Below, piece by piece: positions 3,218 to 23,802 of a stretch of 24,862 nt of DNA. Positions within the stretch are counted from its first letter, which is position 1. The number at the start of each line of letters is the position of its first letter. The notes beneath the pieces were generated by a model that had not been told where the DNA came from, searched no databases, and worked only from the letters and a program-made list of their open reading frames with translations. The stretch comes from Saccoglossus kowalevskii (Eukaryota; Hemichordata; Enteropneusta; Harrimaniidae), in contig NW_003116957.1 in NCBI RefSeq assembly GCF_000003605.2, positions 15,671-40,532 of the forward strand. The letters run 5' to 3'. Position numbers and translations under genes: made by a program.

Positions 3218-3225
3218 TCAAGGCT
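3218..3225 (-). CDS. Exon 28: tentative terminal coding stub and stop
   Basis: Exon 27 ends on a strong donor, so another exon is needed. Downstream, a strong acceptor (TTTTTCCTCCACAG) begins at 3226. The next bases, AGCCTTGA, complete a Glu codon, add Pro and stop, giving the C-terminus MASEP. The frame fits and the end suits an S1 domain. No homology can confirm so short a stub. Confidence 0.45.
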
Positions 3226-6200
3226 CTGTGGAGGAAAAACACACAAATATTAATGCGTCTTGAAAACAGGTAATAAGACGAGTATCCAATCTTTTTAAAC
3301 ACAGACGTCTTGTGAACTACTGTTCTTTCATCGCAAACACGGGTACATGCAATACACGATTTGTTTTAAAATGGTAGTGACTTAGTGAGAATTACTTTGA
3401 AACGATACAATAAATAAACTGGGAAAGTACGAATTGAATTGTCGAGGTCGAAAAAGCATACCCTGGATAATGTCGATGCAATTCTACTGGTCAGCCATAC
3501 CACAACAATTATTTGTTACATATATATTATTGTATAATTGTTGTAATTTGTAATTTTCTGAAAATAAACTCTTACCTGAAGCCATTATCTCGTTCATCCA
3601 TGCAATTCCCTCCGTAACACGGGAATATACGCCAGGGTAATATGAGCTAGCACAGCCACCGCGTCCCCAACTGGTCAATCCAGCGAGATACCAGCGCCCG
3701 TCAGTTTTCTGGCTCACCAATGGGCCTCCACTGTCTCCCTGAAGAAAAAAAAACACACAGCGCATTAACTTCATATACGTCAGGTAAATTAACGTACATA
3801 TGATATTTATGTTTTGCCAATGAGTATTTGTTCAAAAGTGTTAATAACCGAGACATTCCGAAAACAGTAAAATTGTAACCACTTACGTAACAAGTATCAA
3901 TACCACCGGTATCCAGATAAGCTGCACATATCATCGATGACGAGATATCGCCACCATATCTATCATTGCATGTACCTTGGTTCACAATAGGTACTACAGC
4001 TTCTTGTAGGACATCGGGTGTTCCATAAGCTGTATAGAGATATGTGCGATTAACTTTCGATACATGTGCATATTGTTCAAAGTAGCAAGATATATATGAC
4101 ATTAACACAATATATATGACAACTCTCAAATTATTTTTCATTTAGTTTACAGACACCAATCGTTAAATTATTTAATCGTTAAACAATTTACAATATACCC
4201 CTTATAAAAACATACAAACATACGGTGTACTTACATGTTTCAGACAATTGTCCCCATCCAGTTATAACACACACATCGCCATCAGCAAAAAAAGCATCAT
4301 TGCCATCTGGGGGAAGGCATATAGGTCGGATGTAATCGGTAAATATTATCGGCGTTTCAACGTACAACATGGCAAAGTCATACTGGTTGAAAGTTGTAGA
4401 GTAGCTTGGGTGGATGTACATGGCGCTCACTGGCGTTCGGTACTCATGCACGGAACCAGCAGATAATGACGTAAAACCCATACGTAGCTCTAAGTTGCTT
4501 ACACTTGATGAATAACTGAAACAAATAAACTTGGAATTAATTAAGGTTTCCAATACCTGTCTCATTGACGATTATCGAGAGTCAGTTTAAACTTGAGATA
4601 ATGAATAGCAAAAAAAAACTTACACACAATGTGCTGCTGTAACTATCCAGTTAGAATCAATGAGAACAGCGCCACAATTATGGGCAGAGTGCTCATGTAT
4701 GGAGACTTGCCATGGATGTGTACCTAACGATGCTGCTGATCCTCCTACAATTCTATTCGATTCTGCCGGTGCTGACCCACACAAGTCATTGACTATAAAA
4801 CCAATTAATGTGAATGGGTTATCGTACGGTTATTGAAGATAGTTACTACTATATTAATATCAAACAATTCCAGCCATTGAAAGAGTTTACTGATTAATAT
4901 CTAAGTCTCACCTGTTGGTATACCAATACACACAGAACTATCATTTGTGTGTGGCAATAAGTCACAGTCAATTGGCCAAGCAATTCCACCAGTATTGAAC
5001 TTAGTTTCGCATGACGTTTTAACCTGGTCACAGAAGTGCATGCACGGTGGTCGATACAGGCCTTCCTCGCTGCACTCTGGTGCAAACAATGCGCACATAA
5101 ATAAATCCATGTGTTCGTGACAGGGCGTTCCAGCTCTGTTGTAGCGCATGTTATCCAAAAAATTAACAAGTGCTTGGATATTACCAGAACGATCACTACC
5201 ACTCGTGTACTTCGATAGTCTCGCCATACTGAGGGGCATGTCCCTACATGTTTCAACGGTGATATCCCTACAATCTGTAAAACATTATGTAAGTATGTTT
5301 TGTGTCACAATTTATTAAAGTTCATAGCAAAATAGAACAGTGAAGAAAATTGTGTATCATCTTAAAGTATTATGTTGACATCAAAAAAGCATCAAAAAGC
5401 TGGAAATAAACGTTATTGTACCTAATTTACATATACAGACGAGTCCAAATCAGACAAGTATAAATCAGGTTGCATTAACACACACACACACATATATATA
5501 TAAGGTATATTTCTTAATTTATAGTGTGGGGATATCGCCAAATGTGAAAATGAATAACATACCACATCGCGTTCCACCCCAACCATGATGACACACACAC
5601 GTGTAATCAGCCAACATATCAATGCAGATGCCACCGTTTTCACAGGGATTACTGGAACATTCATCGATTTCTGCAAAAGAATTTGACAGTATTTATTATT
5701 GTTTGAACAATTTCATACACCGCAATCTAGCACTGTTTAAAAGTTATAGGAAAATATGTTACAAACAAATATTTACGATATTTAGTACAAACCTAATTCA
5801 CAGAATTCACCCGTGTAACCATGGGAACAAGCACACGTTGACCTATCTTCATCAACCGGCAAACATGTTCCTCCGTGTACACAGGGATTGCTCATACAGG
5901 GTGTGACTCCTGAAAATAAAAATCAAGCACTATCGTCATCATCTATCAATCAATTCGCCTGTTTGTACCACGTGTGTTTCTCATTTCCTGTATTAAAATA
6001 AAGGTTATAATTATATTACTGTTCCGGGTTGTACCACTATGTATAATACTTACTGACGCAGTCGTATCTTTCATTTTTAGTTGGCATATCTTCACAGTTT
6101 ATTGGCCAGTCATAGCCATTGAGAACATACACTTCGGCACATGCATATTCTACATCTTGACAGAATGTCTTGCATGGTTGTCTGTATGTACCATTAATTC

Positions 6201-9200
6201 CACACTCAGGGGATAGCAATGAACACATGAATAACTCAATATGTGCATGACAGCCGTCGATGTCAGTCAGATTATCCATTTGTTTCATGGCTTGTTCACG
6301 TGATAGACCAAGATGACTGTAGAAAGTGGATCCCCCGTAAGGGAGATGATTCACACACTGTGGAATGCCAATATTTTCACAATCTAAATATGGGTATAAC
6401 AGCAGAATTCATTAGTTGCTATGTAGTGTGTATAGCATTAAAGCAGTGTGTGATAGGAAACAACGTATACACAAGATAGACAGCATGTGAGCACGGTGTG
6501 AGAACCTAAAGTTTCCATATCCGTATATTAATACCACCGTCAGAAAAGTAAGACAATCAAGGTAATATACAAGCTGTACACATAGTTCATATTTACATTA
6601 AAGAAATTATCATATTTAGTAATGTATAGGCCATCGCACTGTGACGTCACATGCTCACGTTTTTTGCCTACTGGCATGCGAATGTGTGATAATAATTGTT
6701 GATCACTGATCACCACTGGCTCACAGTCTGTGGCGACAACAATGCCCATAAGTTATTTTATTAACAGGCACACATATATACTTATCCAATAACAGAAGCA
6801 GCGCAAAACGCTGTTATGTTATCCTTGGATTGAACGGCTGGTTTTTACCAACTAGTAACTGCTCGCACGGACAAACAAACAAGTAAACAAGTGCTAATGG
6901 CGCACAATTCAAATTTGCAGATAAGAGCATCCTCTAAACCCATTGGTTGTGTATGTGTGTGGATATTATATGCATATTCAAATTCATGCAAATCACTTAC
7001 AGAAGTCATCCTTCAAATCTATGTGAAAACCTGTGTTTGTATTCGATCCATCTGTAGTAAATCGAAGCCATATTAGGGTGGATTCAGAGTTCCAGTCTGG
7101 GGGTGAAACGTCACCAGAGTAAATAAAAGCTTGTGTTGATAAATCATCTGGGTCATCGCCGAAACCCCCACTGAAGTAGTCTTCGTCATAATTTGTGTTG
7201 AAAGCAATAAAATGAACATCAATTGCCCTGGTTGGATCGGCTTGAACTATCCATACACAGTCTATAAGGTCATCATAAGGAAGTGGGTAGTTTGGCGACG
7301 TGATAGAAACAACCTCATTAATGCCTAAATTGATGGATTCGGTGCAAGCTAGAAACAAATAAAACAGTTCTATTACATAATACTGTACAACCTAAGACCA
7401 ATTAGAAATCATCATTCTTAACAATTTTCCCGGCCTAGAAGACGTAAATATCTTACATTACTGTGTATTTAATTAACACCAAAATACATTCACTCATGTT
7501 CACAAGTCTGAATGACCATGTGATATTTCTATTGTACAAATTCAAAATTACAACCAATAAACGATCTTTGAAACAAATACAATATTGCTGAAGCGAGTGG
7601 TATGTGTTAATGTTTCCCATAGATTTATGTGTGTTATCTAATTCAACTGTGATATGAGATCATTGCTAAGATGGTTAAACAAAATGCCAACGAATTATTG
7701 TGCAAATGGATTTAATTCCCACTCATTTCATCACAAATACGTTAAAAGTTATCTTTTTCCTTGCGAATGCATTCACCTTTTTGTGCAATGAGACTTAACA
7801 CTTATCTATTTCATTGCAAACGCGCTCACCTTCTCATGCATGGGACTTAAAACCCAACCATCTCATAGCAAATACAATCACTTTTACGAGCAAAGAGACT
7901 TAACATTCATATTTCCTCACAAATGCACTCACCTTCTCGTGCAGTAACACTTAACACCCAACCCTTTTGATAGAATGAACCGTCTGAATCCCAGCTTATC
8001 CATATGTTGCTTGTAGGTGATAACCAATCGTCTGGCGCCACGGAGCCTGATTGGTATATGACACGTGTAGATATGTCATACGGGTCTAAACCATAACCAA
8101 TGCTTATGAAGTCGAAATTTGATTCAGTATCAAAATAGTCAAAATGAATTGAAATAGTTGCTCCAGCATCAGCAGAGATATACCAATAGCACAAATCGTT
8201 GTTCCCATAGTTATCGGGGTAGCCCGGTGACGTCATTACAAATGTTTTCCCGTTTGGAATGTGATTACTTCCTCCACATCCTGCAATGAAAGATAGTTAA
8301 TAAAGTATGGTAAAAATAATCATTGACAATCATACCATTCACGCAATCGCATTGAATTTATACTATTATTATGTACTTTTCTAGTGACTGGTATAGTAGT
8401 GTACTGTTCATGTAGTGATAGTGAGAGGTGGCTTAACGGGAAACGCCTCTGCTTACAGCGACGAGACACATTTGCTGAGTTGTTTATAATTTTGATTACT
8501 GACTGCGGTGTGTACGCTGGCTGCTATTGTGGTACCCTAAGTGTACTATTCACGTAGTTAGGGTTTTAGTATGTATACTTTAACTGTTTTCAGCGCGTAA
8601 TTTTGGCCGATGGCTAGTCTTGCACGTGCAGTTTTGTTTGCGTGATTTGTGTGCACATAGTGCTGGATAAACTGGGATATTTAACATCATGCTTTTGGGT
8701 GGTGTCGAGTGCTGAGTAGCATACTGGTTTCTGTGTGCCAAACGTTTGACAGGAAGATACGTACAACAGTGTGGTTCAGAACTGTAAAGCCACTCCAAAG
8801 AGTAGAATGCCATGCACCAAGTTATCAATAATCACCTACCCAAATGATACTGTCACGTAAAATCACTTACAAATCAACCTTCAAATCTATGTGAAAACCT
8901 GTGTTCCGATGCATGAACTGTTATCAATAATAACCTTCCCAAATAATACTTTCACGTAAAAAAAAAATTGCAACCCATATCAATTGAAAGAGGGTTTGTT
9001 TTGCGGTGCAGTCTGTCGTTGTGTTGAAAACTGTAAAGTGTAAAATTTAAAAAAAATCCAATCAGGAATGACACGATTGTGACACAGAGTAAAAATATGC
9101 ACTAAATGTAAATAAATCATACCTACATATTTTAAACATTAGTGTAATCCAATAGCACTAAAATAAATGATGCAACCTTACCACAGTTGAATTCATCACT

Positions 9201-15200: not shown

Positions 15201-18200
15201 CAGATGTACCCATAAACCAATTTTGACAGGAAACAGAAGCATGGTTTAGCAGCTATTTTTTTTAAATCACTTGTGTCCCAAAAAGCACATTTTTGTGCAT
15301 ATTTCAAACTACAGTGTCCATAAAAATAAAATACTAACAAAACTTTAAAATTCATATAATAAGCTTTCCGAAAATATATAGTTTTGTGGACAAGGGAGGT
15401 CATCTTGGTTTCCTAATTAACTAATTAAAATACCTGTCAGGTAAACTGCATCTGTTTACCAACTGCATCTATGCAACTGCATAGGCTATTAAACATGTAG
15501 TACGTACTACATGTATGCGTGAGCACCAGCGCCCATCCGTCTCTCGTCACAGACGAATCTGAGTTCCATCTAATCCATACGGTAGATACAGACGATGTCC
15601 ATTCAACGTACTGATACTTGGAACTAGATTGGGTGACAGCTTCGGGTTTGCTTTCAAGATTTTTAAAGGAGCTTTAGCCATTCGAAATAGCCAGCGAACG
15701 TGCCAGAATGGATATTAAGTACGATACTCCGTTTTGATGCTCAGGGATTGTTATATGAAGCAAAAATTTACGGCGAATCGGCCACTGAAACGTCACAATC
15801 GAGATCGTTGCGGCACATTCTACGCTGTGAGCATTTCCACGCGTGTCACGCCGATGCTCATCGAGAACACTCTAAGCTGAGTGACTTATGAATAGAAGGT
15901 GTTGTACGTTCGTGAAAAAGTCATTGCAGTCACTTCCACGGCACATTTTTATCTGGCGAGTGGTGAAATAACTTGCGTTTGAGAATTTCTCAATCCCCGG
16001 CTCAATCCATTTCAAAAATGCTATACACGGTAAATTGCGTGATTCACACTGCTGAAACACGGTTACTGAAAAAAGCGTATTTCGCAATTTTTTTCAGCAA
16101 ACAATGTATGTATACTATTAAGTAATGTGAAACTTGTTATAATGCATGAAATAAAATATTGCATACTTCCAATGTAAGTGTTGTTATTTTGTGGGTGAGC
16201 GGGTGTGCATGGTAGATATTTGTTATATGTGATAATATAAATAACACATGGTGATTCGGTAGTATCATGATTTGTTGCCTCCCACGGGCTGTTGGTCATG
16301 ACCACCATCCCTTGGGCAGGCAATAAATCGTAATATTGCCCTTACAAAGATGTGCTGTGTTATACTCTTGGAGAGCATATTGTTGCGCGTAGGGAGTTCA
16401 TTGTTTATACTCGGTTTTGTATTGTCAGACTGAAAGTGTGCATTGTTATTCACAGACAGTGCAAATATTAATAATTCAGTTTTTATGTTTATGAATTACT
16501 AACTTACAATTATTCTCATCACTACAATCCGAACAGTAGCAATTGTCATTGCATTGTTCATATGATGGATAACATTCAGCATTATTCCAGCAAGGCGCGT
16601 ATCCTTCTGGACACGGATATGGTGATGCTGAGGGTGAACCTGCAACGATAGTAAATGACTGAATTTAGTGGGGTCGGACAGGAATTTCAGTAGCTATTTG
16701 CATAAATTGAAGCAATGAAACTATGAAAATTGTCATCATTTACTAATTTACGTAATAATTAAAATTACATGCAAAGTTATATTACGCATATATCTGGTAG
16801 ACATTACTCTGTAATGAGCTCCAACACATGACACAAAGATTTATACGAGATTGCGCCATTCAAAACATAATACATGTATAACAAACTGAGAATTACGTCA
16901 CCTAACACATGACACAATAATTTCAATGATTACGTCACCCAACACAACAATCTCAAGATTAGATTATCAAACACATAATGTCGGGATGTCAACGATTATG
17001 TCAACTAACACAATGAAAACAAATAATAATTATGTCATCTAACACATAATGACACAGCAATCTCAACAATTACGTCATCTAACACATAATGACACAGTAA
17101 TCTCAACTGTTACGTCATCGAACTCAGTGACACAACAATCTCAACCAACACGCTAAAAGTTTTTGTTGTGAAATAATGAGTTGTGTCGGTATAAGTGGGA
17201 CACATATTTTTATAATGTCTACCATTAGTAAGTTACTGTGAAATACTTTTATTTTCGCTGAAGGAATGGTTCAGTGAAAATAAATTCCATCAAATATATC
17301 CTTTGTCCTATTTGTTAAATTCAACTCATCAAAAATCAGTGAAAATAAATTCCATACAAAACAGCCAAAAAATCTTTTTCAGTGAAAATTAATTCCAACT
17401 ATTAAACTCCTACGTACTATATGTATGCGTGAGCACCAGCGCCCATCCGTCTCCAGTGACAGAAGAATCTGAGTTCCATCTAATCCATATGGTAGACACA
17501 GGCGATGTCCATTCAACGTACTGATACTGGAAACCAGATTGGGTGACAGCTTCGTGGTCCCCATAGCCGATGTGGAGAAAATCACAACACTCTTCCGTAT
17601 TGAAATGTGTGGACCGCACGTGAATGTAGCCACCTGGATATGCCTTCACAATCCACTCACAGTCGTCTTCGTTGTTATAATTGTTAGGGTAGTTTGGTGA
17701 GGTCAGTGTGACAGAGCTGCCATCATATACGACTATGTCTCCCCCACAAGCTAAATAAATACATACATAACAAAATCAGTTTAGTTAGAAAGCATAGCCC
17801 ACAATAATTTTTCATTTTTGCCATGTGTGCAAGTATTTGATCAAGTAATTCGCCATTTTCAGTTTAAACTCGATCTTCTGCTTATAATATCAATAGAGGA
17901 CTCAAAAATAACTTCAATGGTAATTTGTAATATCCAATTGACAAAGAGAATGTGTGTTGGGAAGGAACAATAACTGCATTGTTTTTATCAACATTTTGTG
18001 TGACTTACGAGGATGTTGTCCAAGCAGACGGACAATAGTGTGAACATGAGAGTAGTAACTATTAAAACTTAAATAATTTATGTGATATACCAGATTTATT
18101 ATTTCAAGTTTATCATGTAATAATAAATAATCTTTTCAAAAAGTGTTTATAAAGCTGTTTATATATTGGTGAAACTGTTGGACTTCTTGAAAGCCATCGT

Positions 18201-21200
18201 TTCCCTCGTACACATTTTGTTGTAACATTTTGCATTTATTTTCTGTTATTTTCCTGAATTACGTTAATTTTAGACACAATTTGCATAAGATTCATTTGCT
18301 AAAAGATTTTATCCACATTTTTGAACAAATATAAACAAAATACGAAGGTTTATTTGGAAAAGTTGAAATTGGTGCTTCTTAAACGATACGTACTCGGTAA
18401 CTCGTCGCCAGTGATATTAACACATGAGATTCCATTTGGGACAGGCACACATAATTTATCATCAGGACATCCTCCGTTTAGTATCATGACACAGTCGTTG
18501 GTTCCTAGCGAAAAAATAACAGATATATATCATACATAATTACGTTAAAATTATTACAAAATATGACGTGTGTTGGCTCAAATAAAGTAGTACAGACTCT
18601 AAATGATTTTACTGTTTCATATATCAAAACGGAAATGGTTTTTTAGACTCGCCCAGTTTGGGAAATTTTAGTGTTTGGAAGTTTAAGTTTGCAGAATCTC
18701 TCGCGTCAAACAAGATTTAAGGGGAAAAAAGAATAATAAAATTGCCACGGCAGTCCACTTTAATCAAGCGTGTAGAATACATTTCACTATGCGGCTGATT
18801 GTTAATGTTCATGTGAGTGGAATTTAATGGTAAATAATAAAAACAGGTTTGCAAGCGGGATACTAAGAGAGCAAGCCTTTCCCTCGAACTGTGGAGATTT
18901 GTTTTTTTAAATTCTAAAATTGTTCACCTTACCTCAGAATCCTACTTGACCCCCTCCCCCCTCCAATGTAAAAAAGAAAACTAGCTACGATCTCGGCAAC
19001 TCGTGTTTTATGTAGACAAAACATGATGACACATGATTGTCGTGATAAACCTGGATATCATACGCTATGAAGATATTCACATCACCACGGTCAGCACATG
19101 TACATACGATGACAACAAATAGTAAAACTGACCCAATAACCTATCATATGAATTGATGGGCCTGTTCGGCTCGAGCCAGCAAATTTATCCGTCTGAACAC
19201 ACTGGCCTCGATCCTCAATTTACGATGTTCCGCTCCGATAAATCATTGGCGTTTGAACTGGACTGCGATACGGCATTTTATTGGTATTGATATTGTCACA
19301 CGCAACGTAATATTACCGTAATTGGTATAGTACATGTGTGATGGTTCAAATACCAAAATGGCAACAGTAACAAAAAGACTTCCCTGGCGGCGATGATAAA
19401 ATACGAATACGGAGCCAACAGATGAGGTTTCAACTGGTACTGGTATTATTATACTCTGCAAACATCAAGTAGAATAACGCGGTAAAACTCCACTACTCCA
19501 ATAACTAGATACTTAAACTCCAATACAATTCAACGAGATCTCCGATCTGATCTCAGTGCTGAACAGCTCCCCTATATATACCCGCACTGTCTATAAATAG
19601 ACCATTACATCAGCATACATAATGAGTCTTGAACTTACTACAAATTTCTAGAATGTTCCATTACCTTCCATTGCCTCCTACAGTGCTCTATTACCTATTC
19701 AACCAGTTTCTAAAATAATATAGAATATTCCACCCAGACACAGTACGGTTCTAGAACATTCTCAGTGACACGGAAGTGGTAAATAAGTCGTATGCGACAG
19801 ATATTATGCCAACATTTTCACCCTTGGCTTTGTGATCGCTCAATACCGTGCCAACGCCGGTCAATAGCAAGGTTCGCCAACTTGCATTCGCCGAACAAAA
19901 CAAGATTCTTGTGAATTGTTTTAACTAGCCACATCTTTCTAGATAACGCATTCACATTCTATTTCTTTAATTTCAAGATCGACCTAAGTTAGCGCGCTTC
20001 TAGAACTCGTAAGCGGGAACACTGTATTATTTACATGTTTCCCAAATTATTTATTTATTAATGCAATTACTTATATTTGCAATTATTGTGGTGTTCTTAG
20101 TAACCGGAGTCACGTGTCTGGTCGAAGACTCCGAATACGTATATGCGCTCTGAATTTGGCAGAGAAAATTTCCGCGAAAACTAAAAAAAAAATTACTCTT
20201 CAAGTGACACACAAAAGTATGACATCGAAAAAAAGACTTTGTTCTTTTGAATTATGCCCTCTGAACACAACACATAAGATGCACACAAATTTCCCCTGAC
20301 TGAAGTGTGGCTTGTTCAGTAATAAAGTCATTTTTTTCCAGAAAATAAGTGATGTTTTGACTTTGATTTTACCCAAGCCAGGTTTCGCGGGAACACTTAT
20401 TATAGTATTTGATCGATGACACTAAGCCAAAACATAATTTTCCAGCTTCAGAATTACTACCGTATTGTTGACACCGCCCTAATCGATAACACCCCTTGAC
20501 TAAACGACAGGTCGATTACAAGAACATTGCATTATTAAAACTACATTACATACCTTGCGATATCGTATCAGCATTATAGACTGAAATCTTGCTTGGAAAC
20601 GGAATGCCTGTCTGCAGAATATCCAACGTGCCGTGACCATTTCTTTCTATTCGGACGATCCTGTTAAGATACATGTCTGTAAGGTAAAAATAATCTGCAT
20701 CCAAAGTCAACCCATTGCTATAGGCATTGTTCCAGGAAGGGACTGTACACGTGCCTCCAGTGTCCTATTGCCGCCATTCATATCACAAGATTCCAAGTAG
20801 CCCCTGGACGGATCATACCAATACACACGAGATACTGAAAAAAAAATGTGTATGAACGATTAACATTTTATGCCGGGAATGGTGCCTTAGGTTTAACGTA
20901 AGCCAAACGATTATGATATAGACTGGCAATAAGGTGAGTGGTGGAATTCAGTTTGAGCATCAGCCAATCAAAACGATTTTTTGATATACAAAGTTAATAA
21001 AGGGGAGAGGTGCACTTCAAGTTGAACGTCAACCCATCCAACTATTATGGTATGTAAAGATATTAATAAGGGGAATAGTGCACTTAGGTACCCACGCGAT
21101 TATAATATGTAAAGGGAAATGGTAAATAGTTTTATATTACCAATTGGACAGATAGAGAGCAATTGGTCCAAAAAACAATTTTCAAAAAACTCACGCTGAA

Positions 21201-23802
21201 GGTCCACAGTTATAGCAAGATTGTACATGGAGTTATCCTGCAAAATAACTTGCATATTTTGTCCGTCCATGTGTGATTTGTATATCGACTGCATGCCTGC
21301 TACATATGCATACCTGAAATAAAGTAACAATTAAATACACTTTGATAACATAATATATACTGTTAGACATGTGACATTATGTGTTATCGATTGCTTGTCA
21401 GCTACACATGCAGACAAACGTTAACACTGTAGCCTACAGGGATTATCTTGGTGGTTCTGTTCAATGCGTAATAACCTTATTATTATACATCTTTTCCTTC
21501 CAAGGATACATCTAGGGAAAGCCGAAATCCAAAATGTTTAGAACAGAATCAGCAAACTTCTTTGTGTGGAATCCGGTCAAACTCTGATGGCAGCCATGTT
21601 GGTTTTTATTATTAGAGGACGCGCGTCATCATTCCATATTTGGAATTCGCATTTCTTAATATGGTGACAGATGTATAATAATAAATGATTATGCGAATAC
21701 ATATTTCACAATAACAATTGGTATTTGTAATTACCCATTAACAGGGTCCAATGCAATGTCAGACAAGCCCTCATATTCGTCGTATACATATAATATTGTC
21801 CTAGTTCCCTGTAGATTGTGTATAGAGGCCACTTCCAAGGTGTGTTTTGAAGCGTCTATCCAATAAAGTAGACCTGTAATGGTGTCTATTCGTATTGAAA
21901 TAACATCTGTGAACAGAACAGTTTATATTAGGTTATATAGATTAAAGAGCGATGGTCGTACTGTTTTAGATATGTGCTATGTTTTAGATGACGAACAAGT
22001 GAACGGCCAAACAGACAATGTGTTTACACCCTTCTATGCCACTTTGTCTACACGTTATTGCTCCTTGCTAGAAGGTTCTAATTATAGAAAACATATATGA
22101 AACAGTACTAGAGTTCTTACGCTCAAGGTGATTGTCAAACACTACTTCATTTACAGAAGATCCGTAATAGGTTTTCCCTATAACCTGCAGATCCGGGTTA
22201 GACCAATACACAACATCGTCATGATAAGCAACTGCTGTCAGCACCGAGGAATTAGTGAAAACAACCTGCTCCAGTATCGGTACCGCAGTATTCAGGTGAA
22301 CAGCGAACACTCCAGATGAGCCTGCAGTCATTGCAATGTTACGACCTGGAAAGTAAGAAAGACTAGTATAGCTCATGTGATGTAAGTTGTGGAAAAAGCA
22401 TTGAAAAACTGGGAACTGATGACTTGTTTAGCTCATTTAATGTGCGAGATAGATATTGTCAACAACCTTAAAGCGCGGTGGTCGTCGGGCAGCACGTGTT
22501 CGAATTTTATGTACATAAACAATGTATTTTACACGCGTTGTATACGTCGCTATGAGTCCCATATTGAACAGGACGCGGCGTGACGACTGCCGCCCTTTAA
22601 TAATTACGTTATCAGTATTAACAATTGTTTAAACCTCAAGGCTACGAAATAAAACGCTCGAGTTTGGTGGGATTTTAGGAAAAGCTATTGAAAATTTGAA
22701 CTATTGATGATAATTATTTATTTACCACGTGATATATAGTTACAGAAACAATTAACCCAACATATATTCTTCATTGAAACAAAGTAAACATTAATACGAC
22801 TTGGCTTACCATCAATATCATAACATACAATACGGAATCCATTCGAACCAGTGTTTAATAAACCGCTATCGTATGTAAGCGATCCAAAATGAAAAGACGT
22901 AGTCACGGTGAAAGAGTCAAGCATGCCGATAGCCGGAAATGACAATCCCGTAGAATCATAAAACCAGACGGCGTCGGCCATGTTAAACCATTCGACTTTA
23001 CATAGTAATTGGTGATTCAGCTCTGTAACAACGGTAATGTTACATATGGGGTCACCCTTGCTTGGTGGTGGTCTTAAAGTTGTGTCAATCGTGACATACT
23101 GGCCAGCTGATAGAGAATACAGCTTATCGCAGCCAACGTCTGCAAGGAAAGTGTTTTCTAGCATTAAGTATCACAAAGCTTGTTCATTCAAAGAACACTA
23201 ATTTTTTTCACAAAAATAATTAAAGCGTAATTGTATATAAAGAACGGAATTCAAATGATTTAGTGATTATTATTGTAAATAGCTTCGTCAACTTACCTAA
23301 ATCTTTAACTGATATTGAATTTGAGTCAACAACTAATCCCTCGGAAGCGAATGGATCAGACGATGGGTTTGCTATGACGTCATTCAATGTTTGTTGCACA
23401 TTCGCGGTTTGGATGCTTGAGTTTCCTCCGAACGTAAGATCCGTTTTGCAAATAATACTTCCATTACTAGAATGAATAAATTGTAGTTTTTCAATATTTA
23501 TAAATTTCGATGGCAGTTGAGTTCAACAAGCCTATCAAAGAGCAAAGTGTGCAACGACGTCATTAGGAACGTTCGAAATGTTATTCAATCGGCCAATATC
23601 AGCTTCTCGTTTCAGTTTGAATTGCGAAATTCATGAATATTTGTCAAAAACACGGGAATGATTCTGTTGCGCCGGGAGTATAACCTCACATTAACAAACG
23701 GGTCTCACCGATATTTGGTTCAAAAAAAATAATTAAACGAACAAACCTGATTGCTGTCAAAATGACGCCAGTAAGACCAAACGTTGCGAATGTGTTATTC
23801 AT
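3218..23802 (-). CDS. Mosaic SEA/CUB/YWTD/LDLa/EGF/Frizzled trypsin-like protease gene (5' partial)
   Basis: One gene is inferred from 28 minus-strand exons whose GT-AG splice sites and phases chain without conflict. The coding total is 5,102 bases, or 1,701 codons including the stop if one missing base in exon 7 is restored. Domain order is SEA (second half), CUB-like, six-bladed YWTD propeller, EGF-like, CUB, two LDLa-like, four EGF-like, two LDLa, two CUB, Frizzled, two EGF, Frizzled and S1 protease. Almost all module borders are phase-1 introns. The start codon, and any signal or transmembrane anchor, lie beyond the right edge. A SEA domain with a C-terminal S1 domain suggests a type II transmembrane serine protease, and Fz plus LDLa plus S1 recalls corin (family knowledge). 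Physiological substrate and location are unknown. The exon chain could in principle join two genes, but phase and domain continuity argue against that. Confidence 0.85.
3576..3738 (-). CDS. Exon 27: protease catalytic Ser and C-terminal helix
   Basis: The exon starts in phase 0 exactly at GDSGGP (TTTTCTTCAG acceptor) and ends in phase 1 at TCAG|GTAAGA. It encodes [35 protein letters not shown] and [19 protein letters not shown]. The catalytic Ser uses an AGT codon. Gly216 and Gly226 (SWG and GVY) keep the S1 pocket open. Position 201 is Ser, so Cys136 loses its usual partner. If the donor were not used, the frame would read 31 more residues to a stop at 3484. Confidence 0.95.
3887..4029 (-). 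CDS. Exon 26: protease, strand to S1-pocket Asp
   Basis: This 143-base exon (CTATACAG acceptor, TTAC|GTAAGT donor) starts in phase 1 and ends in phase 0. It encodes [27 protein letters not shown] and [18 protein letters not shown]. Cys168 and Cys182 are paired candidates. Asp in IDTC is position 189, predicting trypsin-like cleavage after Arg or Lys. Position 192 is Tyr rather than the common Gln. Confidence 0.95.
4235..4515 (-). CDS. Exon 25: protease catalytic Asp region
   Basis: This 281-base exon (TTTCAG acceptor, phase 2 in; ACAT|GTAAGT, phase 1 out) encodes [48 protein letters not shown] and [19 protein letters not shown] carries the catalytic Asp102 where NDIALL is usual. Cys122 and Cys136 are present. 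The ITGWG strand is canonical. Confidence 0.96.
4624..4792 (-). CDS. Exon 24: protease propeptide, activation site and catalytic His
   Basis: The exon runs from a TTATAG acceptor (phase 1) to TGTGT|GTAAGT (phase 2). It encodes [33 protein letters not shown] and [18 protein letters not shown] is a standard S1 zymogen cleavage site after arginine. The Cys in LCG can pair with Cys122 (RPICLP, exon 25), so the cleaved catalytic chain would stay tethered. The AAHC histidine is the catalytic base. C42 and C58 (chymotrypsin numbering) are both present. Confidence 0.96.
4912..5274 (-). CDS. Exon 23: Frizzled cysteine-rich domain 2
   Basis: The 363-base exon is phase 1 at both ends (TTTACAG acceptor, ACAG|GTGAGA donor). 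It encodes [50 protein letters not shown] and [10 protein letters not shown], ending CIGIPT. All ten Fz cysteines are conserved. A longer insert, [11 protein letters not shown], follows the first helix compared with Fz domain 1. This domain directly precedes the protease propeptide, as Fz and SRCR modules do in corin-type enzymes. Confidence 0.96.
5478..5502. repeat. CA/TA microsatellite
   Basis: A run of CA dinucleotides followed by TA dinucleotides lies in the intron between exons 22 and 23. Confidence 0.9.
5563..5670 (-). CDS. Exon 22: calcium-binding type EGF module
   Basis: This 108-base exon is phase 1 at both ends (TTTGCAG acceptor, TGTG|GTATGT donor). It encodes [19 protein letters not shown], then [14 protein letters not shown]. 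The IDEC start and the 'C.D....YtC.C' pattern are the cbEGF consensus. Calcium would stiffen the EGF pair that joins the two Fz domains (inference). Confidence 0.96.
5793..5909 (-). CDS. Exon 21: EGF module
   Basis: This 117-base exon (TTTTCAG acceptor, TTAG|GTTTGT donor) is phase 1 at both ends. It encodes [18 protein letters not shown], then [16 protein letters not shown]. It is a complete six-cysteine EGF. It sits between the two Frizzled domains and joins exon 22 to read CELEIDEC. Confidence 0.95.
6054..6383 (-). CDS. Exon 20: Frizzled cysteine-rich domain 1
   Basis: This 330-base exon is phase 1 at both ends (ATTTAG acceptor, GTCA|GTAAGT donor). It encodes [48 protein letters not shown] and [11 protein letters not shown], ending DCV. 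All ten conserved cysteines of the Fz CRD are present, along with the 'F.CsL..PeC' and 'WP..C' motifs. Fz domains bind Wnt lipids or other partners, and in corin they help substrate recognition (family knowledge). NLT and NGT are potential glycosylation sites. Confidence 0.96.
6384..7000 (-). other. Intron 19-20
   Basis: A 617-base intron. A 69-codon minus frame at 6540-6749 lacks splice context or a recognised motif. I see nothing else. Confidence 0.7.
7001..7348 (-). CDS. Exon 19: CUB domain with two cysteines
   Basis: This exon has the same 348-base length as exon 18 and phase 1 at both ends (TTCTAG acceptor, TTCT|GTAAGT donor). It encodes [35 protein letters not shown] and [11 protein letters not shown]. 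It is a CUB domain in which the second disulfide pair is missing, as in exon 18. A 44-base copy of its 3' end lies in the intron at 8861-8904. Equal length and shared cysteine loss suggest exons 18 and 19 are duplicates of each other. Confidence 0.94.
7349..7756 (-). other. Intron 18-19, left part
   Basis: AT-rich intron with no open frame of interest and no exon-like cysteine pattern. A weak fifth unit of the neighbouring tandem repeat may start near 7717. Confidence 0.7.
7757..7971. repeat. 51-53 bp tandem repeat overlapping the end of CUB exon 18
   Basis: About four degenerate units continue from the exon's 3' end into the intron. Each contains a copy of the exon-intron junction. The GT of the donor in successive units is at 7932, 7881, 7829 and 7776, spaced 51, 52 and 53 bases. 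The unit at 7829 keeps an intact AAG|GTGAGC donor. The first unit codes for the last CUB strand ([11 protein letters not shown]), and the others are intronic. Confidence 0.8.
7933..8280 (-). CDS. Exon 18: CUB domain with two cysteines
   Basis: This 348-base exon (TTGCAG acceptor, GAAG|GTGAGT donor) is phase 1 at both ends. It encodes [48 protein letters not shown] and [14 protein letters not shown] hallmarks are clear. Only the first disulfide pair is present. The TES..DF acidic residues resemble calcium-binding CUBs. The 3' end of the exon, including the donor, seeds a tandem repeat in the following intron (7757-7971). Confidence 0.94.
8281..9181 (-). other. Intron 17-18 with CUB relic, direct repeats and possible SINE head
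   Basis: A 901-base intron. It holds a 44-base copy of the end of exon 19 (8861-8904), flanked by a direct repeat of about 50 bases (8811-8862 and 8908-8961). At 8429-8440, TGGCTTAACGGG matches the Pol III A-box consensus, followed by text resembling a tRNA-derived SINE head with no clear B box. Confidence 0.6.
8861..8904 (-). pseudogene. Relic of CUB exon 3' end with splice donor
   Basis: The minus strand reads [10 protein letters not shown] and then a GTAAGT donor, matching exon 19 ([12 protein letters not shown] then GTAAGT) almost base for base. The rest of a CUB exon is absent upstream. It is probably what remains of an extra copy of the CUB exon. Confidence 0.75.
9182..9310 (-). CDS. 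Exon 17: LDLa module
   Basis: The exon is 129 bases, phase 1 at both ends (TTTTTACAG acceptor, TGTG|GTAAGG donor). It encodes [20 protein letters not shown], then [20 protein letters not shown] and NC. The six LDLa cysteines and SDE are present. An NGT glycosylation sequon sits where the usual CDG would be, so calcium binding may be altered. A short Ser-Pro-Thr linker precedes it. Confidence 0.93.
9311..10213 (-). other. Intron 16-17
   Basis: A 903-base intron. It has a 16-base perfect palindrome, CTTACGCATGCGTAAG, at 9722-9737 and a GTTT microsatellite at 10016-10047. Frames of 65 to 132 codons on the minus strand are shadows around exon 17 or have no domain. Confidence 0.7.
10214..10330 (-). 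CDS. Exon 16: LDLa module
   Basis: This 117-base exon (CCACAG acceptor, CCTG|GTATGT donor) is phase 1 at both ends. It encodes [20 protein letters not shown], then [16 protein letters not shown]. It is a textbook LDLa module: six cysteines, with the acidic calcium ligands CDG..DC.DGSDE all present. NCT is a potential N-glycosylation site. Confidence 0.95.
10331..10829 (-). other. Intron 15-16
   Basis: A 499-base AT-rich intron in which I see no feature. Confidence 0.7.
10830..10901 (-). CDS. Exon 15: minimal EGF-like cysteine-rich module
   Basis: This exon is only 72 bases, phase 1 at both ends (TTCACAG acceptor, ACTG|GTGAGT donor). It encodes [18 protein letters not shown] followed by ECICT. 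Six cysteines are packed into 24 residues. It resembles the first part of an EGF fold without the last loop. Good splice sites and phase support it, but its domain family is uncertain. Confidence 0.82.
11125..11226 (-). CDS. Exon 14: EGF module 3 of 4
   Basis: The 102-base exon (ATAACAG acceptor, ACAG|GTAATA donor) is phase 1 at both ends. It encodes [14 protein letters not shown], then [19 protein letters not shown]. All six EGF cysteines are present. The donor-side sequence CCTGTTTCACAT (plus strand) is shared with exon 13, showing their common origin. Confidence 0.93.
11343..11450 (-). CDS. Exon 13: EGF module 2 of 4
   Basis: This 108-base exon is phase 1 at both ends (TATAG acceptor, ACAG|GTATAG donor). 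It encodes [18 protein letters not shown], then [18 protein letters not shown]. All six EGF cysteines are present. No calcium-binding D/N-x-D/N-E pattern is visible at the start. Its 3' end resembles exons 12 and 14, consistent with tandem exon duplication. Confidence 0.94.
11511..11790 (+). mobile_element. MITE-like element, copy 1
   Basis: About 280 bases related to the reverse complement of 21477-21684. Both ends carry the terminal motif TTATACATCT or its inverse, AGATGTATAATAATAA, although the left one here is decayed. Shared interior text includes AACATGGCTGCCA and TTTTGGATTTCGGC. This copy has about 70 extra bases after TACATCTGTCACC. No coding capacity is seen. It lies in the intron between exons 12 and 13. 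Confidence 0.75.
11798..11910. repeat. Fold-back element next to MITE copy 1
   Basis: Left arm GAGGATACCTAAAGGTA and on to CAGACAGTAC pairs with right arm GTACTGTCTTTG and on to CTTTGAGGTATCCTC. The loop is about 40 bases and CpG-rich (GCGCGTCGATCGA). It looks like a separate small hairpin element inserted at the edge of the MITE. Confidence 0.7.
12008..12142 (-). CDS. Exon 12: EGF module 1 of 4
   Basis: This 135-base exon is phase 1 at both ends (TTGCAG acceptor, ACAG|GTGAGA donor). A proline-threonine linker, YAPTTIPPP, precedes [16 protein letters not shown] and [16 protein letters not shown]. All six EGF cysteines and the terminal 'YTG..C' motif are present. The linker suggests a hinge after the LDLa twins. 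Confidence 0.93.
12143..13189. other. Intron 11-12, distal part with CpG-rich stretch
   Basis: No exon is recognisable. From about 12600 the sequence becomes CpG-rich compared with its surroundings and contains TCTCGCGAGA at 12911-12920. A plus-strand frame of 89 codons at 12728-12997 has no known motif. A segment at 12999-13050 (GATATCACGATTTGTTGCC) recurs near 13694 and 16252, so at least this end is repetitive. Confidence 0.55.
13596..13661. other. Assembly gap (66 N)
   Basis: A run of N within duplication unit 1. The corresponding part of unit 2 (about 16055-16240) is sequenced, and the gap size may be nominal. It lies in an intron and removes no recognised exon. Confidence 0.99.
13974..14105 (-). 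CDS. Exon 11: LDLa-like module, twin B
   Basis: This 132-base exon is phase 1 at both ends, with the same acceptor and donor as twin A. It encodes [30 protein letters not shown] and SDENNC. It differs from twin A at seven of 44 residues, all in the middle loops. The final 45 coding bases are identical. The Asp of twin A's CNDN is Asn here, which might weaken calcium binding (inference). Splicing both twins keeps the frame, and skipping either would too. Confidence 0.9.
14225..14420. repeat. Degenerate TTACGTCA minisatellite, unit 1 copy
   Basis: Repeats of roughly 40 bases share TACGTCATCTAACACA. TTACGTCA occurs at 14252-14259 and 14289-14296. It is homologous to the larger array at 16838-17150. 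Confidence 0.7.
14542..15484. mobile_element. 943-bp insert flanked by 8-bp direct repeats
   Basis: GCTATTAA occurs at 14534-14541 and again at 15485-15492. Duplication unit 2 has the joined sequence (ACTATTAAAC near 17400) without the insert. The insert is AT-rich and has no coding frame with a recognised motif. Its ends (GGTGGAGATGCAGG and TGCAACTGCATAG) share only a vague inverted match. An 8-base target duplication would suit hAT-like or other DNA elements, but the family is not identified. Confidence 0.65.
15493..15514. repeat. 22-bp perfect palindrome at CUB relic donor
   Basis: Left half ACATGTAGTAC and right half GTACTACATGT are exact reverse complements. The palindrome covers the GTACGT donor of the CUB relic. 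The intact exon 9 donor region has only part of it. Confidence 0.9.
15508..15644 (-). pseudogene. Truncated CUB exon relic with open frame and donor
   Basis: The minus strand reads [35 protein letters not shown] and WALVLTHTC before a GTACGT donor. This is the last 137 bases of CUB exon 9 with a few substitutions and no stop. There is no first half and no evident acceptor at its 5' edge, where it abuts unit 2. It should be noncoding unless a cryptic acceptor is used. Confidence 0.8.
16508..16639 (-). CDS. Exon 10: LDLa-like module, twin A
   Basis: The exon is 132 bases, phase 1 at both ends (GCAG acceptor, AATT|GTAAGT donor). It encodes a short SPSASPYP linker, then [30 protein letters not shown] and SDENNC. 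The ending 'C..C SDE..C' and cysteine order are LDLa-like. LDLa modules bind calcium through acidic residues near SDE and dock ligands (family knowledge). A CYC insert gives eight cysteines rather than six. A near-identical twin lies at 13974-14105 through tandem duplication. Confidence 0.9.
16838..17150. repeat. Degenerate TTACGTCA minisatellite, unit 2 copy
   Basis: About eight degenerate units of roughly 40 bases share T(A/G)CGTCATCTAACACA and AATGACACAGCAATCTCAA. TTACGTCA lies at 16893-16900, 16930-16937, 17070-17077 and 17110-17117. The array is in the intron between exons 9 and 10. Confidence 0.8.
17270..17395. repeat. Short direct repeats TCAGTGAAAATAAATTCCAT
   Basis: The 20-base motif recurs near 17270 and 17337, with a partial copy near 17379. 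It also appears near 14472 in duplication unit 1. No function is apparent. Confidence 0.7.
17418..17750 (-). CDS. Exon 9: CUB domain
   Basis: This 333-base exon (TTTAG acceptor, ATA|GTACGT donor) is phase 1 at both ends. It begins [19 protein letters not shown], then [16 protein letters not shown], and ends [12 protein letters not shown]. The CGG start, the SPNYP turn, the first cysteine pair, the DFLHIGYG strand and the IWIRWNSD strand are typical CUB features. A second cysteine pair appears as adjacent residues in EECCDF rather than about 20 residues apart. The 3' part of this exon was copied in the local tandem duplication (relic at 15508-15644). Confidence 0.93.
17751..18393 (-). other. 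Intron 8-9
   Basis: A 643-base AT-rich intron. I see no repeat or exon-like pattern in it. Confidence 0.7.
18394..18504 (-). CDS. Exon 8: EGF-like module closing the propeller
   Basis: This 111-base exon is phase 1 at both ends (GCTAG acceptor, CCGA|GTACGT donor). It encodes [20 protein letters not shown] and then [15 protein letters not shown]-family propellers are followed by an EGF-like module with an NGGC..LC motif that packs against the propeller, and the spacing here fits that. Only four cysteines are present, so the module is shortened and lacks its third disulfide. There is a potential N-glycosylation site, NIT. Confidence 0.85.
18505..20553 (-). other. Long intron 7-8
   Basis: A 2,049-base intron without any exon-like cysteine or domain pattern. 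The middle, about 19200-20400, differs in texture and holds heat-shock-type elements and TATA boxes, described separately. It may be a decayed LTR or another element. A 72-codon minus frame at 19243-19461 has no recognised motif. Confidence 0.6.
19573..20005 (-). promoter_or_regulatory. Heat-shock-element cluster with TATA boxes (candidate promoter)
   Basis: Read on the minus strand, TTCTAGAA lies at 19998-20005, a three-unit heat-shock element (TTC..GAA..TTC pattern) at 19749-19761, a two-unit site at 19723-19730 and a three-unit site at 19646-19659. Then follow TATA-like CTATTTATAG (19591-19600) and TATATATA (19573-19580). The order and spacing resemble a heat-shock promoter firing leftwards, in the sense of the host gene. 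It could equally be the promoter of an LTR relic. Function is not shown. Confidence 0.4.
20554..20834 (-). CDS. Exon 7: YWTD propeller blades 5-6, broken by a one-base frame shift
   Basis: The exon has a good acceptor (TTTTTCAG) and donor (CAAG|GTATGT). It opens with [20 protein letters not shown] and ends with [18 protein letters not shown] and downstream residues in another frame. The first frame meets TGA at 20707-20709, and the second is closed upstream by TAG at 20765-20767, so the shift lies between these points. The exon is 281 bases, whereas phase-1 entry and exit require a multiple of three, so one base appears to be missing. Sequencing error, a polymorphism and a true inactivating deletion cannot be told apart from this sequence alone. 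The blade homology on both sides is otherwise intact. Confidence 0.85.
20707..20767 (-). other. Frame-shift interval inside propeller exon
   Basis: Between the in-frame TGA of the entry frame (20707-20709) and the TAG that closes the exit frame upstream (20765-20767), the reading frame must move by one base. The entry frame reads [12 protein letters not shown] and the exit frame reads [12 protein letters not shown]. Joining them would make a normal inter-blade linker, so the lesion is probably near 20730-20750. Confidence 0.8.
20835..21194 (-). other. Intron 6-7
   Basis: A 360-base intron. Loosely repeated motifs of about 65 bases (ATTATGATATAGA..AATAAGG..GTGCACTTA) occur from 20900 to 21110. 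No exon is seen. Confidence 0.6.
21195..21313 (-). CDS. Exon 6: YWTD propeller blade 4
   Basis: This 119-base exon begins with one base completing a glycine codon (TTTCAG acceptor) and ends in phase 1 at CAGC|GTGAGT. It encodes [18 protein letters not shown], then [11 protein letters not shown]. The 'i..shmDG.n' and 'laitvD' elements are those of a propeller blade. YVAG replaces the YWTD tetrad, so this is a degenerate blade. It runs directly into LSRVYWYD in exon 7. Confidence 0.9.
21477..21684 (-). mobile_element. MITE-like element, copy 2
   Basis: A 208-base element with perfect 16-base terminal inverted repeats: TTATTATTATACATCT at 21477-21492 and AGATGTATAATAATAA at 21669-21684. It is the inverted, shorter relative of 11511-11790. 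It occupies about half of the intron between exons 5 and 6. Confidence 0.8.
21735..21906 (-). CDS. Exon 5: YWTD propeller blade 3
   Basis: The 172-base exon starts in phase 1 after a CACAG acceptor and ends in phase 2 at TGG|GTAATT. It encodes [18 protein letters not shown], followed by [13 protein letters not shown]. The LLYWID strand and the 'iAlDp..G' turn are the classic LDLR class B repeat pattern. The two flanking introns are the only unlike-phase pair inside the propeller, so this border is not a shuffled module edge. Confidence 0.92.
22121..22345 (-). CDS. Exon 4: YWTD propeller blades 1-2
   Basis: This 225-base exon is phase 1 at both ends (CCAG acceptor, GAGC|GTAAGA donor). It encodes [17 protein letters not shown] at its start, then [18 protein letters not shown]. 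The second stretch is a recognisable YWTD-type strand, with YWSN replacing YWTD. This is the beginning of an LDL-receptor class B six-bladed propeller that runs through exons 4 to 7. In LRP and LDL receptors the fold binds protein ligands or controls their release (family knowledge). No ligand can be inferred here. Confidence 0.88.
22346..22809 (-). other. Intron 3-4
   Basis: A 464-base intron with no feature that I can support. A plus-strand 64-codon frame here is probably chance. Confidence 0.7.
22810..23139 (-). CDS. Exon 3: divergent CUB-like domain
   Basis: This 330-base exon is phase 1 at both ends (GCAG acceptor, GATG|GTAAGC donor) and encodes 110 residues. It starts [18 protein letters not shown] and ends [13 protein letters not shown]. 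The first cysteine, the mid-domain aromatic strands and the terminal 'GF.i' strand suit a CUB fold, as does the length. The usual SPNYP turn and typical cysteine spacing are not clear, so CUB-like is an inference. The four cysteines are in the contexts GC, IC, LC and VC, and the last sits in the final strand, where ordinary CUB domains have none. The exon lies between SEA and the propeller. Confidence 0.8.
23297..23466 (-). CDS. Exon 2: SEA domain C-terminal half with GSIIC cleavage-type motif
   Basis: The exon begins with one base completing a serine codon after a CTAG acceptor and ends in phase 1 at TTAG|GTAAGT. It opens with [15 protein letters not shown] and closes with [14 protein letters not shown]. 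These match the SEA consensus, in which a GSVVV-like motif is followed by a strand and an ending of the type 'l.id..si.v.d'. In many SEA domains the Gly-Ser bond of this motif is cut autocatalytically while the halves stay associated (family knowledge). In membrane-anchored S1 proteases, the SEA domain lies between the membrane segment and the stem modules, which fits its place upstream of everything else here. Confidence 0.85.
23747..23802 (-). CDS. Exon 1 of window: SEA domain, middle segment
   Basis: This 56-base exon starts in phase 0 after a CCAG acceptor and ends in phase 2 at a GTTTGT donor. It encodes [18 protein letters not shown], which continues into exon 2 across a serine codon split by the intron. 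Hydrophobic spacing matches the helix and strand just before the SEA cleavage loop. The first half of the SEA domain is not in view and should lie in an exon further right. The assignment rests mainly on continuity with exon 2, because the exon alone is too short to identify. Confidence 0.75.

What the first reader, a model, noticed from the sequence alone, without database searches (positions are those of the whole stretch)
3218..23802. Protease combining SEA, LRP-type propeller, CUB, LDLa, EGF and two Frizzled domains
Seen: one phase-consistent exon chain encodes SEA, CUB-like, YWTD propeller with EGF, CUB, LDLa pair, four EGF-like, LDLa pair, CUB pair, Fz-EGF-EGF-Fz and an intact S1 protease. 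Known: corin has Fz, LDLa, SRCR and S1; matriptase has SEA, CUB, LDLa and S1; LRP5/6 pair YWTD-EGF propellers with LDLa and act with Frizzled. I know of no protein that joins a YWTD propeller to Fz domains and a trypsin domain. Inference: this may be a membrane-tethered protease that captures Wnt or lipoprotein-like ligands.
Basis: partly seen in the sequence, partly recalled or inferred. Interest (0 to 1): 0.88.

Follow-up and report, generated by a model that had tools for sequence, protein, structure and literature searches.

The report
Mosaic serine protease with LRP propeller
An invertebrate gene appears to encode one long protein that joins a lipoprotein-receptor-type propeller and two Wnt-receptor-type domains to a working-looking trypsin-like protease, an uncommon mix within a familiar class of modular proteases, though the join rests on an assembly gap and no transcript has been seen.

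Summary
The minus-strand exon chain is largely real: 28 exons, 27 of 27 introns GT-AG, about 1,700 residues: half of a SEA-like domain, a CUB-like exon, an LRP-type YWTD propeller (six blades by eye) with a short EGF, CUB, LDLa x2, EGF-like x4, LDLa x2, CUB x2, Fz-EGF-EGF-Fz and an S1 protease with triad and Asp189. The join is still likely: the CUB and LDLa on the propeller side have their closest relatives, by a modest margin, in the LDLa-CUB exons of the protease side or its paralogue. Three other loci share the Fz-EGF-EGF-Fz-S1 order with other N-terminal arms; against the closest, the core is under strong purifying selection. No close second propeller was found. Verdict: an N-terminally extended member of a lineage's modular S1 protease family; a new variant of a known kind. 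Wnt capture is untested.

The parts
23747..23802 (-). E1, SEA-like second half, part 1; an acceptor precedes the ATG, so an internal exon
   Evidence: no Pfam SEA hit; SEA call is by eye
23297..23466 (-). E2, SEA-like second half, part 2
   Evidence: no Pfam or PDB SEA hit
22810..23139 (-). E3, 'CUB-like' exon, no recognised family
   Evidence: no hits; single-sequence model pLDDT 51
22121..22345 (-). E4, YWTD propeller
21735..21906 (-). E5, YWTD propeller
21195..21313 (-). E6, YWTD propeller
20554..20834 (-). E7, last part of the propeller, with a frame break between about 20764 and 20700
18394..18504 (-). E8, short EGF (4 Cys) that continues the LRP alignment of the propeller
17418..17750 (-). 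E9, CUB
   Evidence: nearest relatives in the genome search, its fossil copy aside: C2858 CUB1 and E18
16508..16639 (-). E10, LDLa-like
   Evidence: nearest outside its tandem copy: E17
15501..15644 (-). fossil 3' half of a CUB exon, copy of E9, no 5' half; presumed skipped
13974..14105 (-). E11, LDLa-like, tandem copy of E10
13596..13661 (.). run of N (scaffold gap) inside a dispersed repeat 13197-13800
12008..12142 (-). E12, EGF-like
   Evidence: EGF 0.0015, just under the cut-off
11343..11450 (-). E13, EGF
   Evidence: 1e-6
11125..11226 (-). E14, EGF-like
   Evidence: (weak)
10830..10901 (-). E15, odd short Cys-rich exon
   Evidence: (no hit)
10214..10330 (-). E16, LDLa
9182..9310 (-). E17, LDLa; in-frame Met and hydrophobic stretch upstream at 9356
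7933..8280 (-). E18, CUB
7001..7348 (-). E19, CUB
6054..6383 (-). E20, Fz1 (10 Cys)
5793..5909 (-). E21, EGF
5563..5670 (-). E22, EGF
4912..5274 (-). E23, Fz2 (10 Cys)
4624..4792 (-). E24, S1: activation site R|IVGG and catalytic His
4235..4515 (-). E25, S1: catalytic Asp
3887..4029 (-). E26, S1: specificity Asp189 just before the exon end
   Evidence: numbering recalled
3576..3738 (-). E27, S1: GDSGG, catalytic Ser; Ser in place of the paralogue's Cys201
   Evidence: numbering recalled
3218..3225 (-). E28, last coding bases and stop

Best explanation
One gene encodes a large extracellular zymogen of the S1 (trypsin-like) kind. Its core, LDLa-CUB-CUB-Fz-EGF-EGF-Fz-S1, is shared with paralogues; in this copy the N-terminal arm was lengthened with SEA-like, CUB-like, LRP-type propeller-EGF, CUB, LDLa and EGF modules, partly by duplication of its own LDLa and CUB exons. 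Shown from sequence: the modules, an intact catalytic triad, Asp189, an R|IVGG activation site, and Cys residues placed to hold the light chain to the rest after cleavage. Inferred: it is cut at R|IVGG by another trypsin-like protease or itself, stays disulphide-linked, and the non-catalytic arm docks it on ligands or matrix so that it cleaves after Arg/Lys close by. Guessed: the Fz and propeller modules bind Wnt-type or lipoprotein-type ligands.
For: Exon chain with 27 of 27 GT-AG introns. Domains by Pfam and PDB. E8 continues the LRP2 alignment after E7, so the 2,049-base intron there is unlikely to be a gene border. Across the N-gap: E9's best non-self matches, its own fossil copy (75.6 bits) aside, are C2858 CUB1 (76.9 bits) and E18 of this window (75.2), the next gene 67.4 (76 matches, 150 of 164 candidates scored); E10's best outside its tandem copy is E17 of this window (29.3 bits, next 26.4; 23 matches). 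No start exon stands out between E7 and the protease: 4 relaxed candidates against 1-4 (mean 2.5) in 20 Markov controls. Paralogue C2858 shares CUB-CUB-Fz-EGF-EGF-Fz-S1 at 57-77% residue identity, no stops in 10 of 10 exons compared, dN 0.24 with dS saturated (3.6 by NG86) over 776 codons.
Against: No transcript data were at hand. The two halves meet at a 66-base N-run within a repeat with 40 listed matches (two in this window; 40 of 253 candidates scored), where a scaffold misjoin is possible. The margins are modest. The 4 start candidates are at the top of the control range and the plus strand gave 0. Frame break in E7. No paralogue with a propeller was found: the close propeller matches all lie in this window, and SEA/CUB-like has no second copy found, so the arm's conservation cannot be tested. 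E17 has an in-frame upstream Met with a signal-like stretch, and so has its C2858 counterpart, as a shorter gene would; but 2 internal S1 exons show the same. One disulphide Cys (201) of the protease is lost.
Confidence: 0.68

Rival explanations
1. Two genes, or a scaffold misjoin: an LRP-like gene fragment (SEA, propeller, CUB, LDLa) upstream and a separate modular Fz-S1 protease downstream, brought into one reading by the assembly gap or by over-long exon chaining.
For: N-gap 13596-13661 inside a dispersed repeat; symmetrical phase 1-1 exons join in any order; C2858 shows no match to the window's propeller or E12-E15 exons in the 22 kb fetched upstream of its first LDLa exon (tblastn E up to 0.01); signal-like Met before E17 in both paralogues.
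Against: The gap flanks are the two parts of one repeat copy in the order and orientation seen in the window's other copy; the CUB and LDLa of the propeller side have their closest relatives in the LDLa-CUB exons of the protease side or its paralogue; no start exon above the control range.
Confidence: 0.2
2. A decaying gene: once a full mosaic protease, now a pseudogene or with a dead N-terminal arm.
For: Frame break in E7, fossil half-CUB exon, lost Cys201.
Against: The 27 other exons are open with canonical splice sites; core under purifying selection against C2858, though the test averages over both branches; draft assemblies often hold single-base errors (general knowledge).
Confidence: 0.1
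3. The protein is a Wnt- or lipid-ligand-directed protease: Fz pair and propeller imitate a Frizzled/LRP receptor pair and bring the ligand to the protease, as a decoy or processing enzyme.
For: Both Fz domains keep 10 Cys and their best PDB matches are Frizzled-10 (Fz2) and sizzled (Fz1); the propeller matches LRP6 among others; a modelling paper predicts selective Wnt binding by corin's two Fz domains (PMC6747125, passages read).
Against: No binding data; lipid groove not tested; the propeller matches LRP8, LRP4 and LRP6 about equally (68.3, 67.8, 67.5 bits), so it shows no Wnt-co-receptor preference; the same paper calls the Wnt relevance of corin, MFRP and similar proteins largely unknown or incompletely proven.
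Confidence: 0.15

Closest known systems
Corin (Fz-LDLa-SRCR-S1 type II transmembrane protease)
   Same: two Fz domains, LDLa repeats and a C-terminal S1 domain
   Different: corin has eight LDLa and an SRCR before S1, and no CUB, EGF or propeller is named (domain lists: PMC9138375 and PMC10376093, passages and legends); here Pfam lists no SRCR; a separate Fz-LDLa-S1 locus lies at C1652
Matriptase-2/TMPRSS6 and enteropeptidase
   Same: their S1 domains are among the best PDB matches; CUB and LDLa (and perhaps SEA) in the arm
   Different: they lack Fz and propeller (TMPRSS6 list: PMC10376093 passages; enteropeptidase recalled); module order differs
LRP and LDL-receptor family
   Same: YWTD propeller followed by EGF; LDLa modules
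   Different: one propeller only, no transmembrane segment seen, ends in a protease
MFRP (membrane frizzled-related protein)
   Same: CUB, LDLa and Fz modules together (recalled)
   Different: no protease, no propeller (recalled)

Membership tests
S1 trypsin-like protease | catalytic His-Asp-Ser and R|IVGG activation site | tested here: met
   Pfam Trypsin 2.5e-60; aligned with hepsin, E 7.6e-51
S1 trypsin-like protease | Asp189 (cuts after Arg/Lys) | tested here: met
   GGIDTCYGDSGG aligned to hepsin GGIDACQGDSGG; numbering recalled
Type II transmembrane serine protease | N-terminal transmembrane domain | not testable with these tools
   5' end off the contig; no TM in the visible chain
Type II transmembrane serine protease | C-terminal S1 domain after a modular stem | tested here: met
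Corin | two Fz, eight LDLa, one SRCR, S1 | tested here: not met
   four LDLa-like, no SRCR listed by Pfam at E up to 0.1, CUB/EGF/propeller present
Matriptase/TMPRSS6 | SEA, two CUB, then LDLa, S1, no Fz | tested here: not met
   Fz pair lies between CUB and S1
LRP receptor | YWTD propeller with EGF | tested here: met
   but the E8 EGF has 4 Cys and E7 a frame break
LRP receptor | C-terminal transmembrane segment and cytoplasmic tail | tested here: not met
   chain ends in S1 and a stop at 3218
SEA domain | whole SEA profile match | tested here: inconclusive
   only a half is in the window; no SEA hit in Pfam or PDB
Frizzled-type CRD | 10 Cys and Pfam Fz match | tested here: met
Frizzled-type CRD | binds the Wnt lipid | not tested

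The most novel reading that the evidence does not exclude
A single polypeptide that carries the two ligand-binding module types of the Wnt receptor pair, an LRP-type YWTD-EGF propeller and Frizzled-type domains, on a trypsin-like protease, and so acts as a self-contained Wnt- or lipid-ligand-directed protease.
Probability: 0.12. Interest if true: 0.85.

Novelty: new variant of a known kind. Interest (0 to 1): 0.42.

Why it matters
If the transcript exists, it shows how a modular protease gains a receptor propeller by exon shuffling, and it offers a natural test of whether Fz and propeller modules on a protease bind Wnt-type ligands, an open question for corin too. The locus also preserves the process: a repeat-associated tandem duplication added one LDLa exon and left half a CUB exon behind.

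Tried and rejected
Looked for gene borders by start-exon scans: the strict scan gave one candidate between E7 and the protease, 19024-18946; the relaxed scan gave 4, at the top of the range of 20 Markov controls (1-4, mean 2.5), with 0 on the plus strand. In-frame Met plus hydrophobic stretch (9-residue mean 2.2 or more) upstream of E17 noted, but internal S1 exons E26 and E27 show it too: 3 of 28 exons. Looked for a second propeller or SEA/CUB-like copy in the genome: beyond the window only 5 distant LRP-like matches (24-35% identity) and none, respectively (33 and 4 candidates scored). Looked for an allele to settle the E7 frame break: the only near-identical matches are the window itself. 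A 26-base GT..AG stretch in E7 was considered as a tiny intron and rejected as too short (by eye). AlphaFold of E3 alone gave pLDDT 51, not used. Lineage: the mitochondrial contig's codon use (ATA as Met, AAA as Lys, AGG absent) speaks, by recalled code tables, against a cnidarian, echinoderm or tunicate; not taken further. Literature: eight answered searches listed no paper on this combination.

Full report
What is there. The window is C1058:15671-40532 of an unnamed 572 Mb animal genome and reaches the end of its 40,532-base contig. On the minus strand 28 exons run from 23802 to 3218; 27 of 27 introns are GT-AG and phases join throughout if a frame break inside E7 is allowed for. The reading is 1,700 residues with 112 Cys and 13 N-glycosylation sequons.

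Domains. Pfam finds Trypsin (2.5e-60), two Fz (2.4e-29), two CUB (5.9e-30), a third CUB in E9 (2.3e-13), LDLa (6.1e-12), EGF and Ldl_recept_b (2.8e-5, 24.9 bits against a cut-off of 21). The propeller with E8 aligns with LDL-receptor-family propellers; chains with one matched stretch score 68.3 bits (LRP8), 67.8 (LRP4), 67.5 (LRP6) and 60.8 (LDLR), so no member is clearly closest; 60 of 68 matches were shown. Six blades are counted by eye. The protease is closest among PDB chains to hepsin, TMPRSS6 and enteropeptidase (60 of 93 shown). The SEA call and E3 as CUB get no supporting hit in Pfam or PDB. The SEA-like part is a C-terminal half; E1 starts right after an acceptor, so the rest, and any signal peptide or anchor, lies off the contig. 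E10 and E11 are weak LDLa and E15 is unrecognised.

In E7 (20834-20554) the reading leaves its frame between about 20764 and 20700. At 13596-13661 there is a run of N. Its flanks, 13197-13595 and about 13662-13800, belong to a dispersed repeat: 40 matches are listed for the first, two of them in this window (40 of 253 candidates scored), and 66 for a stretch that holds the second (40 of 192 scored, several matches per place). So the propeller half (E1-E11) and the protease half (E12-E28) meet at a scaffold gap inside a repeat.

One gene or two. For one gene: the E8 EGF continues the LRP alignment of E7. The CUB E9, on the propeller side, finds its closest non-self relatives, after its own fossil copy (75.6 bits) is set aside, in C2858 CUB1 (76.9 bits) and E18 of this window (75.2), ahead of the other genes among 76 listed matches (next 67.4; 150 of 164 candidates scored). 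E19, the second CUB of the protease side, scores only 50.5. The LDLa E10 finds, after its tandem copy, E17 of this window first of 23 listed (29.3 bits, next 26.4; the C2858 counterpart of E17 has 24.9). The margins are modest, but both point the same way: modules on both sides of the gap appear to be duplicates of each other. The repeat copy around the gap is collinear with the copy at 15650-16277. Start-exon candidates between E7 and S1 number 4, against 1-4 (mean 2.5) in 20 Markov controls and 0 on the plus strand. Against: symmetrical phase 1-1 exons make phase matching uninformative; C2858 has no detected match to the window's propeller, SEA-like or E12-E15 exons in the 22 kb fetched upstream of its first LDLa exon; and E17 and its C2858 counterpart both have an in-frame upstream Met with a hydrophobic stretch, although internal S1 exons E26 and E27 show the same.

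Relatives in the genome (tblastn exon matches in fetched stretches; not gene models). C2858 carries three LDLa matches, then CUB-CUB-Fz-EGF-EGF-Fz-S1. C2346 plus strand carries EGF and CUB modules, then LDLa-CUB-CUB-Fz-EGF-EGF-Fz and two of the four S1 exons; the other two were not matched. C2346 minus strand carries EGF, EGF, Fz, Fz, EGF, EGF, Fz, S1. C1652 has Fz, seven LDLa-like open frames and S1 exons, a corin-like set; SRCR was not searched for there. Between the window and C2858, ten exons compared have no stop, 57-77% identity, dN 0.24 and saturated dS over 776 codons. No close second copy of the propeller or of SEA/CUB-like was found. So the core is an established, selected family of this genome, and the propeller arm, as far as seen, is this copy's own.

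How the arm grew. A unit from within the CUB exon E9 (17554) to 15650 was duplicated to 15644-13197, at 80-91% identity in the main collinear pieces; this gave a second LDLa exon (dN 0.08, dS 0.25) and a stranded 3' half of a CUB exon at 15644-15501.

Mechanism. Shown by sequence: triad, Asp189 and R|IVGG; Cys in the propeptide and Cys122 that could hold the two chains together (numbering and pairing recalled). Inferred: activation by cleavage at R|IVGG and docking through the arm. Guessed: Wnt or lipoprotein ligands. The loss of Cys201 while Cys136 stays leaves one Cys unpaired in the protease.

Known kin. Corin (two Fz, eight LDLa, SRCR, S1; PMC9138375 and PMC10376093, passages and legends read) and TMPRSS6 (SEA, CUB x2, LDLa x3, S1; PMC10376093) share kinds of modules but not the order. 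A beetle survey lists corin as Fz, LDL(2), SRCR (PMC11172050, passages read). Patthy's group state that erroneous predictions may contribute more to architecture differences than true rearrangements (PMC3927612, abstract and section list read), which is why a transcript is needed here. A survey of amphioxus GPCRs (PMC2246102, passages read) shows new module mixes in another animal but nothing on this protein. No animal proteome was available, so whether the same order is annotated elsewhere remains open.

Noticed in passing
1-887: Minisatellite of 12.6 copies of a 70-base unit, 94% matches.
   Followed up: no
17554-15650 and 15644-13197: Repeat-associated tandem duplication that added an LDLa exon and left a fossil half-CUB exon.
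   Followed up: yes
13197-13800: Dispersed repeat: 40 matches listed in the genome for its first part, window copies included, others up to 86% identical.
   Followed up: partly
11644-11797 and 21469-21622: Inverted pair, 154 bases, 89% complementary, in two introns of the gene; looks like two copies of a mobile element.
   Followed up: no
3576-3738: Protease has Ser where the paralogue has Cys201 (PLVSQ; paralogue PLVCQ) while Cys136 stays (numbering recalled).
   Followed up: partly
12605-12939: 336-column alignment, 95.5% identical, to C2346 (L018:4282-4617), probably another dispersed element.
   Followed up: no
L040 (G000:C4830:13523-14863 with flanks): Mitochondrial contig: nad1 and cox2 on one strand, cox1 on the other between them; ATA reads as Met, AAA as Lys, AGG absent in the three genes.
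   Followed up: partly
G000:C2346:264793-380000: Several S1, Fz, CUB and LDLa exons in both orientations, a likely cluster of related modular proteases.
   Followed up: partly
L013:2092-2155: Possible signal-peptide exon (phase 1 out) about 570 bases before the first LDLa exon of paralogue C2858, which would make that paralogue secreted.
   Followed up: no
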